DNA of 64,000 nucleotides from Salinibacter altiplanensis (GTDB taxonomy: Bacteria; Bacteroidota; Rhodothermia; Rhodothermales; Salinibacteraceae): assembly GCF_002894645.1 (NCBI RefSeq), contig NZ_NCQY01000002.1, forward strand, positions 24,848-88,847. Direction: 5' to 3'. A program made the position numbers and the translations under genes. The notes under the pieces were generated by a model. It was not told where the DNA came from, searched no databases, and saw nothing but the letters and a program-made list of their open reading frames with translations. Below, in pieces: positions 16,330 to 22,611 of the stretch (its first letter is position 1; each line of letters opens with the position of its first letter).

Positions 16330-16427
16330 CACACAGGTCTTGCTTCGGTGTAGGGTTGTCCTCGTAGGCTTTGAGTCGTACGTTGCCCTCCTCCCTTAAT
16401 TTCTGCATGACCCCACACGCACGTCCG

Positions 16428-17615
16428 ATGGCCTGGAGTTCCGTTCTCGATCAGGATCGGGTGGTCCACACGCTGCGTCGGGCCCTTGCCCAAGAGCGGG
16501 TGGCCCACGCGTATCTGTTGCACGGCCCCGATGGGGTTGGCAAGCGGACCGTGGCCTACGAGATGGCCCGCGCCCTGCAGTGCCCCGAGTGTGCCGACGA
16601 GGCCTGTGACGCGTGTCCCACCTGCCGCAAGACCCGGCGTATGGTGCACCCGGACGTGCACGTCAACCTCCCTCATCCGTGGAGCCAGGAGAAGGACCGT
16701 GACGAGGAGGACATGGGAAAACGGATCCGGCGGCTTGGCGACAATCCGTACGCGGCCATCGACTACGTGCGTCGCCCCTCTCTCTCCGATCCCTCCGAGA
16801 CGTCGAACCAGCAGGTGTACTACCGCATTGGCCAGGTGCGGCAGGACATCATCCAGCCCATGAGCCTGGCGCGAGGGGAGGGGCAATACAAGGTCAACAT
16901 CCTAATTGACGCGGAAAAGATGCGGGAGGAGGCGGCCAACACGTTCCTAAAACTGCTGGAGGAGCCGCCCCCGCAGACGGTCTTTTTGCTCACCACGAAT
17001 CGGCCCGAGCAGCTGCTGCCCACCATTCTGTCGCGGTGCCAGCAATTGCGGTTCGACCCGCTTCTGCCAGAAACGATCGAACAGGCCCTCGTGGATCGCG
17101 ACGGCATGGAGCCGGACGCGGCCTCGATGCTGTCACGAATGGCGGACGGCTCCTACAGCCGGGCCCTCGAACTGGCAGAGAACGATGCCCTGATGACCAG
17201 CCGTGAGCTGGTGCTCGACTACTTCCGGGCGGCCTACACGCAACAGGTGGAGTCGCTCGACTCGTGCATCCAAGAACTCAAAAGCCAGGGCCGTGAGCGG
17301 GTGAAAAGCGTGCTCCGGCTCATGCTGCGCTGGATGCGCGACCTGCTCCTGTACCGTACGATGGGGGAGGAGGCTCCCCTGGTAAATGTGGATCAGAAGG
17401 AGGCCGTGGCTCGCTTCTGCAACAACCTTCCAGACGCCGACCTGGAGGGGATGGTGACCCTCGTAGAAGAGGCGATGGAGCTGGCGGAACGCAACGTGCG
17501 TGTTGCGCTGGTCCTCACCGCCCTCGCTCACGGCCTGGCCCGGGCGATGCGCGGGCAGGCGGTCGAGACCCTCTACGTTCCCCTCTCCGAGGCAGAACGA
17601 CCAACGCCCGCCTAA
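16428..17615 (+). CDS. holB: DNA polymerase III clamp-loader subunit delta-prime
   Basis: 395 residues of the AAA+ clamp-loader family, which helps open and load the sliding clamp at the replication fork. Walker A in LLHGPDGVGKRTVAYEMA, a zinc module (CPECADEACDACPTC), the sensor/partner region TFLKLLEEPPPQTVFLLTTN and the SRC motif in ILSRCQQLRFDP. The ATG at 16428 (MAWSSVLDQDRVV) is aligned with where the family normally begins; an ATG at 16407 would add seven residues and would overlap the possible divergent ATG at 16408. It is followed after 62 bp by a TPR-protein gene. Confidence 0.92.
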   Translation: MAWSSVLDQDRVVHTLRRALAQERVAHAYLLHGPDGVGKRTVAYEMARALQCPECADEACDACPTCRKTRRMVHPDVHVNLPHPWSQEKDRDEEDMGKRIRRLGDNPYAAIDYVRRPSLSDPSETSNQQVYYRIGQVRQDIIQPMSLARGEGQYKVNILIDAEKMREEAANTFLKLLEEPPPQTVFLLTTNRPEQLLPTILSRCQQLRFDPLLPETIEQALVDRDGMEPDAASMLSRMADGSYSRALELAENDALMTSRELVLDYFRAAYTQQVESLDSCIQELKSQGRERVKSVLRLMLRWMRDLLLYRTMGEEAPLVNVDQKEAVARFCNNLPDADLEGMVTLVEEAMELAERNVRVALVLTALAHGLARAMRGQAVETLYVPLSEAERPTPA

Positions 17616-17677
17616 GGACTCCCTCCGACGTCCCGGGCGGATCTCATTGACCCAGTCGTAGCACGCCCTCTTGCGCC

Positions 17678-18496
17678 GTGAGTCGTCTGTTTTGCGTGTC
17701 TTCGTTTGGGCGCCTGGGGCCGGTGGTCGGGCTCCTCCTGGTGAGTCTGGTGGGGGGGCATGGGGGGACGTCATCGGCACTGGCGCAGTCCACCGGTGCG
17801 GCCGACTCAGCTCCCGAGAACACTCTTGTGGCGGTCGACAGTCTGCGTCGGGCAGGGGCCTTCCAGGCCGCGCAGAAGCGCCTTCAAGCCCTGCGCCAGC
17901 ACGCCCCCGACCGGGTTGCGGTGCTGTGGCGCCTCGCCTACACATACGCCGACATCGGACAGTCCACCGAGGACGAAGACGTACGGACGCAGTACTACGA
18001 GAATGCGCTTGCCGTGGCGGAGGCTGGCCTTGCGACGGACTCGACCAGTGCTCGGGCCCACCTAGCGATGGCGGTGGCGCAGGGGCGGGCGGCCCTGGAC
18101 GCCGGCACCCGGGAACGCATCGAGCGGTCCCGTGCGGTGAAGCGCCACGCGGACCGGGCCCTCGCGATCGACTCGACGCTCGATGGGGCCTACCACACGC
18201 GGGGACGCTGGCACCGCGAGGTGGAAAACATCGGCTTCTTTCAGCGGGCCCTCGTGAAGACCGTCTACGGCGGGCTCCCCGAGTCCTCGATCGACCAGGC
18301 CGTTCGGGACTTTCAGCGGGCCCTTGAGCTGCACGACCGGATTCTTCATCACCTTGAGCTGGGCAAGACGTATCTGCAAATGGATCGGCCGGACGCGGCG
18401 CGGCGCGAACTGCAGGCGGTCCTCGACCGGCCGGTCGAAGAGCCGTTCGATCCGGACTACAAGGACGAAGCGCGCCGGCTGCTTGAGGACCTTTGA
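17678..18496 (+). CDS. Exported TPR-repeat protein
   Basis: 272 residues from a GTG start. An N-terminal hydrophobic signal (GLLLVSLVGGHGG..SALAQ) is followed by alpha-helical TPR-like repeats: a first pair around residues 50-110 (RRAGAFQAAQKRLQALRQHA), AHLAMAVAQGRAALD, and a final pair (AVRDFQRALELHDRILHHLELGKTY). It resembles the RMDN-type TPR proteins seen in Bacteroidota, with an insert (ENIGFFQRALVKTVYGG) typical of that group. Probably a periplasmic scaffold; no enzymatic motif. It lies between holB and the vWA gene on the same strand, but a 102-bp gap separates it from the latter, so membership in that operon is unclear. Confidence 0.75.
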   Translation: MSRLFCVSSFGRLGPVVGLLLVSLVGGHGGTSSALAQSTGAADSAPENTLVAVDSLRRAGAFQAAQKRLQALRQHAPDRVAVLWRLAYTYADIGQSTEDEDVRTQYYENALAVAEAGLATDSTSARAHLAMAVAQGRAALDAGTRERIERSRAVKRHADRALAIDSTLDGAYHTRGRWHREVENIGFFQRALVKTVYGGLPESSIDQAVRDFQRALELHDRILHHLELGKTYLQMDRPDAARRELQAVLDRPVEEPFDPDYKDEARRLLEDL

Positions 18497-18598: not shown

Positions 18599-19465
18599 AT
18601 GCCGTATTCCGCCGCAATTAGTCGTCAGCAGCCCACTGCAATCCTGTTCCTGCTCGACCAGTCGGCGTCGATGCAAGAGCCCTTCGGCGGGGCCGAGAAG
18701 ACGGGCGACGCGGCCCCGAGCCGCGCCCGTGTGCTGGCGGACACGGTGAACGACCTTCTGCAGAACCTGGTGCTACGGTGCGCCAAAGAGGAGGGCGTGC
18801 GCGACTACTTCCACGTCGGCGTCGTTGGCTACGGGCAGCGTGTGCAGCGCCTCGTTCAGCCGACGGAGGAGTACGCCCCTGGCACCGGTCTCGTCCCCAT
18901 CAGTCACCTTGCCGACCGGCCCCAGCGCATGGAGCAGCGGGTGACGGAGGTGGACGATGGGGAGGGCGGCACGACGGAGACGCGGGTCAAAACACCGATC
19001 TGGTTCGATCCGCAGGCCAAGAACGGAACGCCCATGTGTCAGGCGCTCGACCTGGCGGCCCAGTCCGTGCGCGACTGGATCGACCAGCACCCGCACAGCT
19101 TTCCCCCCATCGTCCTGAACGTGACCGACGGCGAGGCCACGGACGGGGACCCGCTCCGCTACGCCCAAGAGCTGCGCTCGTTCGCGACCGACGACGGAGA
19201 GGTGTTGCTCTTCAACATCCACCTGTCCGCGTCGGAAGAACCGCCCGTGGAACTGCCGTCCGCCACCGACGGGGTGCCGAACGACGACGAGTACGCCGAG
19301 GTGCTCTTCCAGATGTCGAGCCGGCTGCCGTTCTCCATGCGATCGGCCGCGGAGCAGGAAGGCTACAGCGTCACGCTCGACACGCGGGGGTTTATTTTCA
19401 ACGCCGACCCGGTCTCGCTCGTCACGTTCCTGGAGATTGGCACGCGGCCGAGCAATCTGCGGTAG
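18599..19465 (+). CDS. vWA domain protein of a TerY-P triad
   Basis: 288 residues forming essentially one von Willebrand factor A domain. The metal-ion-dependent adhesion site is intact: FLLDQSASM (Asp20-x-Ser22-x-Ser24), a Thr in NGTPMCQALDLA, and the Asp in VLNVTDGEATDGD. No signal peptide, so cytoplasmic. It resembles TerY-type vWA proteins that pair with a PP2C phosphatase and a kinase. The next two genes are exactly these, spaced 45 and 17 bp on the same strand, which supports a three-gene operon. The partner and ligand are unknown; known TerY-P systems are linked to tellurite or other stress responses. Confidence 0.88.
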   Translation: MPYSAAISRQQPTAILFLLDQSASMQEPFGGAEKTGDAAPSRARVLADTVNDLLQNLVLRCAKEEGVRDYFHVGVVGYGQRVQRLVQPTEEYAPGTGLVPISHLADRPQRMEQRVTEVDDGEGGTTETRVKTPIWFDPQAKNGTPMCQALDLAAQSVRDWIDQHPHSFPPIVLNVTDGEATDGDPLRYAQELRSFATDDGEVLLFNIHLSASEEPPVELPSATDGVPNDDEYAEVLFQMSSRLPFSMRSAAEQEGYSVTLDTRGFIFNADPVSLVTFLEIGTRPSNLR

Positions 19466-19510
19466 GGAGATGGTGATCTCGTCCGGCATGTGAACTGGCC
19501 GAAAGCGTCA

Positions 19511-20314
19511 ATGAGTGCGCCCCCACGGCCCGACTCTTCCCACGGAGCCCCTGCGACGGGGGAGGCCTGTGTGTTGGCCGTGCCGAAAGGGGGCGGACGC
19601 ATGGACGCCTACGAAGACGCGGCGTCCGTTCGGGCCGAGGCGTGGCCGGCTCGGCTCGCCGTGGCCGACGGGGCAACGGAGTCGGCTTTCGCCAAGGAGT
19701 GGGCGGAGCGCCTGACGCGCGGCGTGGTGGAGCAGGGCGCCTCCACCCCCGAGTCCCTGCGCCGGGCGGTGCCGGACTGGCAGGCGCAGTGGCGGGCGGC
19801 GGTCCGTGCGCGTGCTGAAGAGGGCCCCTGGTACGTGGGGGCGAAGGCGGCGGAGGGCGCCTTTGCCACGCTGCTGGGGCTATCACTGCGGGCCGACGGG
19901 CGGTGGCGCGCCGTGTCGGTCGGCGACGGTTGCCTCTTTCGGGTACGAGACGGAGCCCCTGTGCAGAGCTGGCCGTTCGGAGCGGCCGATGCGTTTACGA
20001 ACCGGCCCGCCCTCGTGCCCAGTCGCCCGGGCCAGACGCTGCCCACGCCCGAGGCGACCTCCGGATCATGGAGCGCGGGCGACGTCTTTGTGCTCGCCAC
20101 CGACGCCGTTGCCGCTTGGCTTCTGGCCCCGGAGTCGTCTGTCGGACCGGCGGCCGCGGCAGCGTGGGACGAGACACAGTTTCGACGAGCCGTAGAGCAG
20201 GGGCGCACCGAGGAGATGCTCCGCAACGACGACGCCACGCTTCTCATCATGCGTATTGCCGAGACGCCGGACGCAGGGTCGGAGGCCTCGCCGGCCCCGC
20301 CGAACCGATCGTAG
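19511..20314 (+). CDS. PP2C-family protein phosphatase of the TerY-P triad
   Basis: 267 residues. PP2C hallmarks: RMDAYEDAASV and ARLAVADGATESAFAKEWA supply metal-binding acids, WRAVSVGDGCLFRVRDG is the conserved GD strand, GDVFVLATDAVAAWLL supplies the ATD motif, and RNDDATLLIMRI the terminal DD motif. It should remove phosphate from Ser/Thr residues, presumably on the kinase encoded next or on a shared target. The ATG at 19511 is preferred to a GTG 21 bases upstream. No signal or membrane segment. Second gene of the operon. Confidence 0.9.
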   Translation: MSAPPRPDSSHGAPATGEACVLAVPKGGGRMDAYEDAASVRAEAWPARLAVADGATESAFAKEWAERLTRGVVEQGASTPESLRRAVPDWQAQWRAAVRARAEEGPWYVGAKAAEGAFATLLGLSLRADGRWRAVSVGDGCLFRVRDGAPVQSWPFGAADAFTNRPALVPSRPGQTLPTPEATSGSWSAGDVFVLATDAVAAWLLAPESSVGPAAAAAWDETQFRRAVEQGRTEEMLRNDDATLLIMRIAETPDAGSEASPAPPNRS

Positions 20315-20331
20315 CGACGAGACGCGCCGTT

Positions 20332-22161
20332 ATGCCGAGCTATCCCCCCCCGAGTGAGTACCAAGAGGCCCTCCAGGCCCCCGCCGTGGCGTTCGCGGAT
20401 TCCGAGCTCCAAAACGGCACGCCCCGGACGAACGCGCTCGGCCTGCCGCAGCCCGTCACCGGATCGTTTGCCGCGGTCTTTCCGATGACGACGGACGCGG
20501 GGAGGCGCTACGCCGTCAAGTGCTTCCTGGCGGAAATGCCCGACCAGCAGGCCCGGTACGAGGCCGTCGCTGAAGTGCTGGAGGGGATCGACCACGATGC
20601 GTTTGTCGAGTTTGCCTACCAGCCGGAGGGCATTTCGGTGCGGGGCGAGGCATATCCACTGCTCAAGATGAAGTGGGCGGAAGGCATTCCCTTGAACCGG
20701 TTTGCCGAGAAGCACCTCGACCGGCCCGGCGTGCTGGACCGCCTGGCGGAGGCCTGGGCCGGCCTCATGGCGGACCTGGAGTCCATGGACCTGGCCCACG
20801 GTGACCTTCAGCACGGAAATGTATTGGTGGAGACGGCGGGCGAGGCGCTGCGGCTTCGGCTCGTGGACTACGACACGATGTACGTGCCGGCGCTGAAGGG
20901 ACGGGCGAGCGCAGAGGTGGGGCACCGCAACTACCAGCATCCCGACCGCACCGACGCTGACTTCGGGCCCGCCCTCGACTGCTTTTCCGGGCTCGTCATC
21001 TACACCGCCCTGCGAGCCTGCGCCGTGCGGCCGGAGCTGTGGGACGAGTACGACACCGGGGAAAACCTGCTCTTTCGGGATGCTGACTTCTACGCCCCGG
21101 AGGAGTCGCCTCTCTTCGGTGCCCTAGGGGAGATCGAGCCCCTTCGCGCGCTGTCGGACGCGCTGCGGACGGCCTGTTACGTGGAGCCCGCCGACGTGCC
21201 GCCCCTGCCGGCCGTGCGGGACGGCCGCCTGGAGCCGAGTCAGGTTTCGGTGTCTCGGTCCAACGCCCAGCGGGGGCGCGACACGGGGGAGCGAAGCACG
21301 GCTGCCCGCGTCTTCCTTCCCGTAACAATTGGGGGGGTGGGGATGGCGCTTGGGCTGGCTGGGGTGGGAAGGGGACTCGTCGCCGCCGGGGTGCTTTTGG
21401 CAGGAGCGAGCGTGGGGGCGGGAGTCGTCGCGACGCGGTACCGCCGCCTCTCCCTCGTCCGACGCCGACGCCGATTGGAGCAGGAGGCCGACCGCTTCCG
21501 GTCCACGATCCAAGAGCTCGAACGCGAAGTGGCCAGCCTGCAAGAGAAGCGCGACGAGCTGCGCACGTCCATGGCCGAGCGGCGGCAGGAGCGGCTGCGG
21601 GAGATTCAAGAGCAGGTGCTACACGATCGTCTCAAGCACCACTTTGTCGAGGAGGTGCGGGACGTCGAGGGACTCACCCACAAACACGTCGTGCGGCTGA
21701 AGGCCGCCAATCTACGCACTGCCTCGGAGCTTACGCCGGCGGCCGTCGACGCTGTGCGGCGCATCAGCGATCGGGCCCGTGCCCGGCTCAAGATGTGGCG
21801 GGCGGCCCTGGAGGAACGGTACGCCGACGAGATTCCGGATGCGTTATCGCCGGCCCAGGAGCGACGTCTTCAGCGCTACATCGAGCACCGGATTGACGAC
21901 CTCGGTGATCAGATCGGCCGCACCCGCGAAAAGATCCAGACGCAGCGGACGGAGCTCGAGCGCATCGAGGAACGGCTCGATGAGATGCCGAACCTGAGCG
22001 TTGGGCACTACGTGTGTTTCCTGCTCCGGCTCGCCGCGCTCCCGGACCGGACGGGAGCGCCTCCCGAACCGTCGCGCCCACACGAAGTGGGGACGTCTGA
22101 TGACCGTGCACCGGTGCCCGAGCCGGTTGAGGACGACCGTTCGTGGTGGACACAAGGGTAG
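20332..22161 (+). CDS. Membrane-anchored Ser/Thr kinase-like protein with coiled coil and helix-hairpin-helix region (TerY-P triad)
   Basis: 609 residues. N-terminal kinase-like domain (~40-300): VAIK-like lysine Lys63 in RRYAVKCFLAEM, catalytic Asp158 in LAHGDLQHGNVLV, and metal-binding DYD (179-181) instead of DFG in RLVDYDTMYVP. HGDLQHGN plus DYD is characteristic of the kinases in TerY-P triads. A hydrophobic double segment (~326-370) rich in Gly/Ala probably spans or inserts in the membrane. It is followed by a coiled coil (~380-430, RRRRLEQEADRFRSTIQELE), a helix-hairpin-helix-like part (KHVVRLKAANLRTASELTPA) and a further coiled coil. The Glu-Lys pairing and substrate are not visible. 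The gene closes the three-gene operon; a hairpin follows its stop. Confidence 0.88.
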   Translation: MPSYPPPSEYQEALQAPAVAFADSELQNGTPRTNALGLPQPVTGSFAAVFPMTTDAGRRYAVKCFLAEMPDQQARYEAVAEVLEGIDHDAFVEFAYQPEGISVRGEAYPLLKMKWAEGIPLNRFAEKHLDRPGVLDRLAEAWAGLMADLESMDLAHGDLQHGNVLVETAGEALRLRLVDYDTMYVPALKGRASAEVGHRNYQHPDRTDADFGPALDCFSGLVIYTALRACAVRPELWDEYDTGENLLFRDADFYAPEESPLFGALGEIEPLRALSDALRTACYVEPADVPPLPAVRDGRLEPSQVSVSRSNAQRGRDTGERSTAARVFLPVTIGGVGMALGLAGVGRGLVAAGVLLAGASVGAGVVATRYRRLSLVRRRRRLEQEADRFRSTIQELEREVASLQEKRDELRTSMAERRQERLREIQEQVLHDRLKHHFVEEVRDVEGLTHKHVVRLKAANLRTASELTPAAVDAVRRISDRARARLKMWRAALEERYADEIPDALSPAQERRLQRYIEHRIDDLGDQIGRTREKIQTQRTELERIEERLDEMPNLSVGHYVCFLLRLAALPDRTGAPPEPSRPHEVGTSDDRAPVPEPVEDDRSWWTQG

Positions 22162-22194: not shown

Positions 22195-22611
22195 CTACTC
22201 GTCTTCGTCCCAAAGGTCCTCCAGGTCGTCGATCGTCGTATCCGACGGCTCTTCCTCGGGCGTATCGTCGCCGCGCACGAGGGCCAGAATGGCGTTGTGC
22301 TGAACGATCATGTAGTTTGTCTCCTCGTAGCGCAGGTCGATTGCCTCGTTGCCCATGAAGAAGGCGTAGTCGCCCGAGTTGGCCTGGAGCGGCAGGTACC
22401 GGACGGGCGTTTCGGACTCCTTCCAGGTTTCGCTCTCGCTGTACTCGGGGTTTTGGGTCAGGTACCCCGGGCCGGTTTTTACGACCCGACCGCTCAGAAC
22501 CTCGCCTTGCTGCGACACCGACGCGGGAAGCACGAGGCCGGTGTCCGTCTTGTCTTCGCCAGTCTGTGGCTCAATGAGAACGCGATCGCCAACGACAATC
22601 AGGTCCGCCAT
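22195..22611 (-). CDS. GroES-like co-chaperone family protein
   Basis: 138 residues. The N-terminal ~105 residues match the chaperonin-10 fold: LIVVGDRVLIEPQTGEDKT, mobile-loop-like DTGLVLPASV, GRVVKTGPGYL, and YAFFMGNEAIDLRYEETNYM before the last strand. The C-terminus is an acidic tail (EEEPSDTTIDDLEDLWDEDE) not found in classical GroES. No groEL is adjacent, so this is probably a second, divergent GroES-like protein rather than the main co-chaperonin. ATG at 22611 begins the fold directly. Confidence 0.85.
   Translation of the reverse strand: MADLIVVGDRVLIEPQTGEDKTDTGLVLPASVSQQGEVLSGRVVKTGPGYLTQNPEYSESETWKESETPVRYLPLQANSGDYAFFMGNEAIDLRYEETNYMIVQHNAILALVRGDDTPEEEPSDTTIDDLEDLWDEDE

What the first reader, a model, noticed from the sequence alone, without database searches (positions are those of the whole stretch)
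18599..22161. Compact vWA / PP2C / membrane kinase operon: a TerY-P triad without Ter genes
Three tightly spaced genes encode a vWA domain with intact MIDAS, a PP2C phosphatase and a kinase-like protein with HGDLQHGN and DYD motifs. This matches the TerY-P triad described in comparative genomics as a phospho-signalling module. Here it stands without any TerB/C/D/E gene in the window, and the kinase carries a Gly/Ala-rich membrane segment plus coiled coils and an HhH-like part. What the vWA protein binds and what the kinase phosphorylates is unknown, so it may be a little-studied membrane stress sensor of halophiles.
Basis: partly seen in the sequence, partly recalled or inferred. Interest (0 to 1): 0.72.

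Follow-up and report, generated by a model that had tools for sequence, protein, structure and literature searches.

The report
Membrane kinase–phosphatase–vWA signalling triad
Three neighbouring genes of a Salinibacter-type bacterium encode a vWA-domain protein, a PP2C-type phosphatase and a kinase with a predicted membrane-spanning hairpin, which would together work as an on/off phosphorylation switch; nearly all examined genomes of its family carry it, so it is likely an everyday signalling unit rather than a phage-defence cassette, although its signal and targets are unknown.

Summary
In detail: vWA (18599-19465, intact MIDAS), PP2C (about 19511-20314), Hanks-type kinase (20332-22161, 609 aa). 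PADLOC profiles call the triad TerY-P (TerY 318 bits, PP2C 89, kinase half of STK_OB 266). But the kinase lacks the OB fold or zinc ribbon of described TerY-P kinases: after the kinase domain come a predicted membrane hairpin, long helices and a degenerate helix-hairpin-helix (HhH) pair, homologous to the tails of E. coli YegI and actinobacterial triad kinases. It is no visible island: it sits in a conserved holB-TPR-vWA-PP2C-kinase block; the kinase is in 26 of 27 family genomes; vWA occurs in 38 of 39 kinase-bearing genomes of the order and none of the other 75. Constraint is graded: dN/dS 0.04 (vWA), 0.17-0.19 (kinase), 0.34-0.37 (PP2C). Rhodothermales kinases lost the HhH GxG hairpins (kept in 1 and 0 of 27, against 37 and 49 of 62 in Actinobacteria), with an invariant His beside the first. 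Most likely a membrane-anchored, cytoplasm-facing phospho-switch of YegL/PphC/YegI style: a new variant of a known kind, not halophile-specific. Signal, substrates and any phage role are untested.

The parts
18599..19465 (+). vWA protein, TerY type, 288 aa
   Evidence: PADLOC TerY 318 bits over the whole profile; 70-96% identity in 37 of the 38 genomes of the order that have it, the other (G239) having only a second-type copy at 47%; AlphaFold2 pLDDT 85, vWA/integrin-I-like fold
18656..18670 (+). MIDAS DQSAS (residues 20-24); T144 at 19028-19030 and D177 at 19127-19129 complete it
   Evidence: D20, S22, S24, T144, D177 invariant in 42 rows
19511..20314 (+). PP2C-type phosphatase, 267 aa from ATG 19511 (GTG 19490 possible)
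   Evidence: Pfam PP2C_2 39.6 bits, over its cut-off, PADLOC PP2C 89 bits; D53, D139, D198, D240 and D241 at 99-100% in 80 rows
20332..22161 (+). Hanks-type kinase with predicted membrane hairpin, long helices and HhH-like pair, 609 aa
20797..20820 (+). catalytic loop HGDLQHGN (residues 156-163)
20866..20874 (+). DYD motif in the place of DFG (residues 179-181)
21310..21435 (+). predicted two-helix membrane hairpin (residues 327-368)
   Evidence: 41-49 residues without D/E/K/R in 24 of 27 Rhodothermales kinases, in the other 3 (the window included) one such residue near the middle; net positive flanks on both sides in 26 of 27; two helices in the model
21451..21633 (+). long helices, likely coiled coil 1 (about residues 374-434), basic
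21646..21819 (+). degenerate HhH pair (about residues 439-496) without the GxG hairpins, with invariant His450
21850..21984 (+). long helix, likely coiled coil 2 (about residues 507-551)
16371..18496 (+). syntenic upstream neighbours holB (DNA polymerase III delta') 16371-17615 and a TPR protein 17678-18496; not claimed as functional members

Best explanation
The vWA, PP2C and kinase genes form a conserved triad whose products would work as a reversible Ser/Thr phosphorylation switch, with the kinase predicted to be anchored in the cell membrane by a helical hairpin and to keep both its catalytic domain and its HhH-like tail in the cytoplasm. Inferred cycle: the basic juxtamembrane helices and HhH-derived pair bind a cytoplasmic or nucleoid-side ligand (presumably nucleic acid in HhH-intact relatives; in Rhodothermales the GxG hairpins are gone, so more likely a protein or another polyanion), the kinase autophosphorylates and phosphorylates targets, PP2C resets it, and the vWA protein, through its MIDAS metal site, acts as the conserved adaptor or phospho-target that carries the output to a slowly evolving cell component. 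Shown: gene content, motifs, homology, synteny, co-occurrence, grading of constraint, loss of the HhH glycines. Predicted: hairpin and topology. Inferred: catalysis, ligand, role of vWA, housekeeping role rather than phage defence.
For: TerY/PP2C/STK profile matches. Catalytic and MIDAS residues invariant. Conserved block holB-TPR-vWA-PP2C-kinase in Salinibacter, other genera of the family and Rhodothermus, without the TPR gene in G056 and G297. vWA in 38 of 39 kinase-bearing genomes of the order against 0 of the other 75. All three genes under purifying selection, vWA dN/dS 0.04, second lowest of 12 neighbouring genes in two pairwise comparisons. Tail homologous to actinobacterial triad kinases (HHalign probability 98%, E 8e-15; reversed control 0.2%) and to YegI (89%, E 2e-6). 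YegI is reported as a membrane-bound Ser/Thr kinase that autophosphorylates, and PphC as the phosphatase that dephosphorylates it (PMC13232886 passages). Hairpin with positive flanks on both sides. HhH pair and second long helix as conserved as the kinase domain (88% and 94% against 86% to S. ruber), and residues 369-500 basic (pI 9.8-11) against pI 4.5 for the kinase domain. Ten neighbours are ordinary by Pfam (one of the ten has no Pfam match); PADLOC gives 0 matches for 8 of the 10 and weak partial ones to candidate models for a response regulator and a histidine kinase.
Against: No activity was measured. PP2C shows no detectable specific kinship with E. coli PphC (HHalign probability 1%); vWA only a weak one with YegL (78%, E 2e-5, C-terminal half); the kinase profile aligns with YegI only through the tail, not the kinase domain. 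Loss of the HhH glycines weakens a DNA-sensing reading. vWA and kinase are unlinked in 4 of 27 family genomes, so they need not act as one complex; two of those four (G001, G020) are fragmented assemblies. The set is patchy in the order (39 of 114 genomes), and within the order the kinase tree does not follow families cleanly, so transfer or loss is possible. OB-fold relatives defend against phages, and slow evolution does not exclude that here.
Confidence: 0.6

Rival explanations
1. It is a TerY-P anti-phage defence system that happens to be chromosomally fixed: the kinase senses infection and phosphorylates a target to stop phage growth.
For: All three PADLOC TerY-P profiles match. OB-fold TerY-P-like modules are described as stand-alone anti-phage systems (PMC11090510 passages; PMC7699616 passage), and TerY-P protects P. 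aeruginosa PAO1 (PMC10889362 passages).
Against: No OB fold or zinc ribbon; no defence system recognised among ten neighbours by Pfam or PADLOC beyond weak partial matches to candidate models; kinase in 26 of 27 genomes of the family, mostly in a conserved block; vWA dN/dS 0.04. Defence genes are usually patchy and fast-evolving (general knowledge).
Confidence: 0.15
2. The HhH-derived part still binds DNA and the kinase is a membrane-to-nucleoid sensor activated by DNA, as reported for B. subtilis YabT.
For: Conserved basic juxtamembrane stretch and basic residues 369-500. YabT is a membrane kinase activated through a basic juxtamembrane DNA-binding motif (starts of the abstracts of PMC3708118 and PMC6333020 in the listing). 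HhH-intact homologues in Actinobacteria and E. coli.
Against: GxG lost in 26 of 27 (first) and 27 of 27 (second) Rhodothermales hairpins; Pfam HHH_5 appears, below its cut-off, in YegI and two actinobacterial rows but not among the matches of the whole window kinase.
Confidence: 0.15
3. The three genes are merely neighbours: the vWA protein has its own role and only PP2C and kinase form a pair.
For: vWA is away from the PP2C-kinase pair in G016, G020 and G023; holB-TPR-vWA stays together in G016 and G020.
Against: Near-perfect co-occurrence of vWA and kinase; same three-gene order in 65 of 65 actinobacterial loci examined, which were picked by their vWA; in G001 it is the kinase that is apart, not vWA.
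Confidence: 0.1

Closest known systems
E. coli YegL - PphC (YegK) - YegI
   Same: Same gene order vWA-PP2C-kinase; kinase with membrane segment then helices and HhH pair; tails homologous
   Different: YegI has a degenerate catalytic loop (VGDVNQNS) but GVG and GFG hairpins; here the catalytic loop is intact and the HhH is degenerate. PP2C and vWA are not detectably or only distantly related to PphC and YegL
TerY-P of anti-phage type (TerY, PP2C, STK with OB fold; PADLOC TerY-P)
   Same: TerY vWA, PP2C and kinase domain match its profiles
   Different: Kinase tail is membrane hairpin and HhH-like, not OB; no defence island seen; kept across a family
TerY-P with zinc-ribbon kinase (CoCoNuT- and Ter-associated)
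   Same: vWA, PP2C, STK triad (PMC11090510 passages)
   Different: No CxxC for a zinc ribbon; no restriction or Ter genes recognised nearby
Actinobacterial vWA-PP2C-kinase triads (kinase with TM helices; mentioned in PMC7159879 passages)
   Same: Same order in 65 of 65 loci examined, vWA 46-53% identical, kinases with a predicted membrane segment and HhH
   Different: HhH hairpins mostly intact there; longer kinases (680-790 aa in 60 of 62)
B. subtilis YabT
   Same: Hanks kinase anchored by a C-terminal membrane helix with a basic juxtamembrane region (starts of abstracts)
   Different: No vWA or HhH tail known to me (recalled); similarity of working only, no membership claimed

Membership tests
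TerY-P triad (general) | TerY-type vWA gene | tested here: met
   318 bits over the whole PADLOC TerY profile; E. coli YegL scores 11.7
TerY-P triad (general) | PP2C gene next to it | tested here: met
TerY-P triad (general) | Ser/Thr kinase domain of the TerY-P type | tested here: met
   STK_OB profile positions 2-306 of 562, 265.7 bits
TerY-P, anti-phage OB type | OB fold after the kinase domain | tested here: not met
   The modelled C-terminus from residue 302 is all helical or disordered. The profile's C-terminal half is unmatched, but it is also unmatched in a Nocardia kinase that looks OB-type by eye, so the profile alone does not decide
TerY-P, anti-phage OB type | blocks phage | not testable with these tools
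   -
TerY-P, zinc-ribbon type | C-terminal zinc ribbon | tested here: not met
   Cys only at 64, 217, 230, 282, 562; no CxxC
TerY-P, zinc-ribbon type | neighbouring Ter or DNA-processing genes | tested here: not met
   TerD absent from the genome; TerB- and TerC-type hits on other contigs; ten neighbours scanned. The neighbour holB is a replication gene, which I do not count
YegL-PphC-YegI | kinase with membrane segment and helical HhH C-terminus | tested here: met
   HHalign with YegI 89%, E 2e-6; whole-kinase profile 97%, E 2.5e-11, again on the tail; model
YegL-PphC-YegI | intact HhH GxG hairpins | tested here: not met
   window GLT and RIS against YegI GVG and GFG
YegL-PphC-YegI | PP2C and vWA orthologous to PphC and YegL | tested here: inconclusive
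   PphC 1% probability, YegL 78%
YegL-PphC-YegI | membrane localisation, autophosphorylation, reversal by the phosphatase | not testable with these tools
   reported for E. coli

The most novel reading that the evidence does not exclude
A membrane-anchored vWA/PP2C/kinase switch with an HhH tail is the old, chromosomally kept form of the TerY-P module, a core signalling unit of Rhodothermales. The anti-phage OB-fold triads arose from it by swapping the kinase's C-terminus, and in Rhodothermales the HhH pair was rebuilt from a DNA grip into a new ligand site marked by an invariant histidine, read out by an almost unchanging vWA hub.
Probability: 0.25. Interest if true: 0.62.

Novelty: new variant of a known kind. 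Interest (0 to 1): 0.42.

Why it matters
TerY-P modules are known mainly from phage defence, tellurite islands and restriction clusters. This set looks like a resident, chromosomally fixed version in a whole bacterial family, with a YegI-like membrane kinase. If confirmed it would give a non-defence reference state for the TerY vWA/PP2C/kinase module, a candidate in vivo substrate (the vWA protein), and a natural experiment on what the HhH tail does, since one lineage lost the hairpin glycines while keeping the part conserved.

Tried and rejected
Halophile-specific stress sensor: rejected as too narrow, because the same block is in Rhodothermus and the same triad in Actinobacteria. Mobile defence island: no support among ten neighbours, GC 0.60-0.71 over 10-30 kb with the triad at 0.67-0.70, no vWA match in 50,697 phage records, and matches in only 2 of 72,556 plasmid records, both cyanobacterial. 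Gene fission of the kinase in G012/G013: rejected, both halves lie at contig ends. The genes between PP2C and kinase in Rhodothermus as a fourth component: rejected, they are an isocitrate lyase family gene and an HTH/IrrE-like regulator, and most other genomes have PP2C and kinase next to each other. Direct ortholog of PphC: not supported. PDB sequence searches gave nothing specific for vWA or PP2C. The PDB fold searches of the whole kinase model are filled by kinase domains, so the fold of the C-terminal part was not tested. A class-wide search around E. coli for reference proteobacterial TerY-P triads could not be run, so no experimentally tested TerY-P protein was compared directly; PADLOC profiles stood in for them.

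Papers: the listings showed no title or abstract start about this triad in Salinibacter or Rhodothermales (open-licence library only; up to 15 listed per search). Gao 2020, Anantharaman 2012 and the two Rajagopalan papers were not seen; they are known here through passages of other papers and recall.

Rows dropped before counts: the HhH count used 62 of 67 kinases from 65 actinobacterial loci (1 OB-like, 2 short or interrupted, 2 cut by contig ends left out) and 27 full-length Rhodothermales kinases, 20 of the family and 7 outside it (truncated L025, L026, L030, the frameshifted G008 kinase (L027/L034) and the second-type G239 kinases left out). The tree used 53 rows and a quick search; YegI is a very long branch, so the root is unsure. 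Strain names given to G015, G016, G023 and G056 rest on equal contig lengths (G016), not on a label.
Full report
What is there. Three + strand genes at 18599-19465 (vWA, 288 aa), about 19511-20314 (PP2C, 267 aa from ATG 19511) and 20332-22161 (kinase, 609 aa) lie 45 and 17 bp apart. The window is part of a 3.59-Mb, 99.75% complete genome, close to Salinibacter grassmerensis by protein identity (96% for vWA, 84% for the kinase's first 320 residues).

Families. Pfam sees VWA and Pkinase just under their cut-offs and PP2C_2 above; no NCBIfam model is matched over its cut-off. PADLOC-DB gives TerY 318 bits, PP2C 89 bits and STK_OB 265.7 bits, the last only for the kinase half. E. coli YegL matches the TerY profile at only 11.7 bits, PphC matches none, and YegI does not match STK_OB.

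The kinase tail is different. In the literature TerY-P kinases carry a C-terminal zinc ribbon, and the stand-alone anti-phage version an OB fold (PMC11090510 passages; PMC7699616 passage). Here there is no CxxC and the AlphaFold2 model (mean pLDDT 84.3, pTM 0.57) is helical or disordered after residue 302: helices 323-344 and 348-372, long helices 374-412, 414-434 and 507-551, and four short helices 439-496. In 27 full-length Rhodothermales kinases the membrane stretch is 41-49 residues without D/E/K/R in 24, and in 3 (the window included) one such residue lies near the middle; flanks are net positive on both sides in 26. That is what a two-helix hairpin with both ends in the cytoplasm looks like; it is a prediction. 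Profile comparison shows the tail (from residue 373) to be homologous to that of actinobacterial triad kinases (98%, E 8e-15; reversed control 0.2%) and of E. coli YegI (89%, E 2e-6). The kinase domains of the window and YegI were not aligned by that method; only the tails were. In E. coli the genes are in the same order, yegL-pphC-yegI, with yegJ between the last two on the other strand. YegI is reported as a membrane-bound kinase that autophosphorylates and PphC as dephosphorylating it (PMC13232886 passages; the two original papers were not held). [quoted passage not shown] A 2020 survey mentions actinobacterial kinase genes fused to a zinc ribbon or to TM helices next to PP2C and vWA genes (PMC7159879 passage).

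A lineage-specific change. In relatives the HhH hairpins read like GIG/GVG: GxG in 37 of 62 (first) and 49 of 62 (second) actinobacterial kinases, third-position Gly in 59 and 54; YegI has GVG and GFG. In Rhodothermales GxG survives in 1 of 27 and 0 of 27 (third-position Gly in 1 and 5), while the residue after the first hairpin is His in all 27. Pfam HHH_5 is seen, below its cut-off, in YegI and two actinobacterial rows and faintly in the one Rhodothermales kinase that kept GIG; it is not among the 19 families matched by the whole window kinase at E up to 1, nor among the best 25 of 41 shown for its tail fragment. Yet the part is conserved: 88% identity to S. ruber for the HhH pair and 94% for the second long helix, against 86% for the kinase domain and 58% for the tail end, and residues 369-500 are basic in an otherwise acidic protein. 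So it has a use, but probably not the usual HhH grip on DNA.

Distribution. In the family, 27 of 27 genomes give a kinase match, but one (G021) only a weak one, so 26 of 27; vWA 25 of 27. vWA and kinase lie side by side in 20 of 27; in G016, G020, G023 and G001 they are at separate places; in G002 and G010 the kinase lies at a contig end; G021 lacks both. In the order, 44 of 114 genomes give a kinase match, 39 of them strong and 5 weak (E above 1e-8), and 38 of 114 have vWA; 38 of the 39 have both (the exception, G002, is 84% complete), and none of the other 75 has vWA. One of the 38, G239, has only a second-type triad. In a draw of 247 genomes of the phylum 13 match, and all 11 strong matches lie in this order. 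The block holB-TPR-vWA-PP2C-kinase is shared with other genera of the family and with Rhodothermus; G056 and G297 lack the TPR gene there; a Cpn10-like gene lies convergent downstream in S. ruber, G014, G023, G029, G056, G003, G005, G180 and G001. In G016 and G020 the break fell between vWA and PP2C, in G001 between PP2C and kinase. In Rhodothermus an isocitrate lyase family gene and an HTH/IrrE-like regulator gene sit between PP2C and kinase, but not in the related G180, where the three genes are adjacent. A vWA-based scan of named genomes confirmed 105 relatives and kept 80: 65 are actinobacterial and all 65 have vWA, PP2C and kinase in this order; of the 15 Rhodothermales loci 12 show all three.

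Second type. G239 carries a 47% identical vWA with a kinase that matches only in its first 310 residues and has another tail; G284 has a 50% identical vWA with such a kinase, cut by a contig end, besides the usual set. Nocardia miyunensis has an HhH-type triad and one whose kinase looks OB-like by eye side by side. In the kinase tree the Rhodothermales HhH kinases are one clade (SH-aLRT 99); the few OB-like and other-tail kinases fall among HhH-type kinases. With YegI also HhH-type, this hints that the HhH tail is older, but the OB-like sample is two and the root is on a very long branch.

Constraint. Against S. ruber (G015) and G014: vWA dN/dS 0.040/0.040, kinase 0.171/0.193, PP2C 0.366/0.341, with Cpn10 0.018/0.021 the lowest and PP2C the highest of 12 neighbouring genes in both comparisons. 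A hub that hardly changes beside a fast phosphatase suggests that vWA faces a conserved partner. This is inference.

Mechanism and rivals. The best reading is a membrane-anchored, cytoplasm-facing phospho-switch with vWA as adaptor or target. Defence cannot be excluded: TerY-P protects P. aeruginosa PAO1 (PMC10889362 passages). Against it stand the missing OB fold, the fixed block, and ten neighbours without a recognised defence system; PADLOC gives weak partial matches to candidate models for the response regulator and the histidine kinase among them, as such common domains will. A DNA-activated kinase like YabT (starts of abstracts only) is possible because of the basic juxtamembrane region but is weakened by the lost glycines.

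Verdict. Real, well conserved, and a variant of a described module rather than a new kind. What appears new, as far as the listings show, is the family-wide fixed version, the graded constraint and the rebuilt HhH.

Noticed in passing
22195-22611 (-): Cpn10/GroES-like protein of 138 aa with an acidic tail, convergent with the kinase gene in many relatives; dN/dS about 0.02.
   Followed up: partly
21310-21435 and loci L025, L026, L032, L033, L029: Contigs of G012 and G013 end inside or beside the codons of the membrane hairpin, and one of G010 close to it; the stretch may be hard to assemble.
   Followed up: no
P0021 (1480-bp metagenome contig): A Salinibacter-like kinase domain fused to a Pfam PF18967 region; on so short a contig it may be a chimera, or a different membrane tail.
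   Followed up: no
L105 6417-9389 and L051 9335-12306: In Rhodothermus an isocitrate lyase family gene and an HTH/IrrE-like regulator gene lie between PP2C and kinase (Pfam on the L105 pair).
   Followed up: partly
L147 4208-7853 and 8001-11796: Nocardia miyunensis carries two vWA-PP2C-kinase triads next to each other, one with a kinase that looks OB-type by eye and one HhH-type.
   Followed up: partly
P0092, P0113: Proteins with two kinase domains of this type in tandem.
   Followed up: no
L186 3620-5233 (-): In G291 a gene with TPR repeats lies on the opposite strand between PP2C and kinase.
   Followed up: partly
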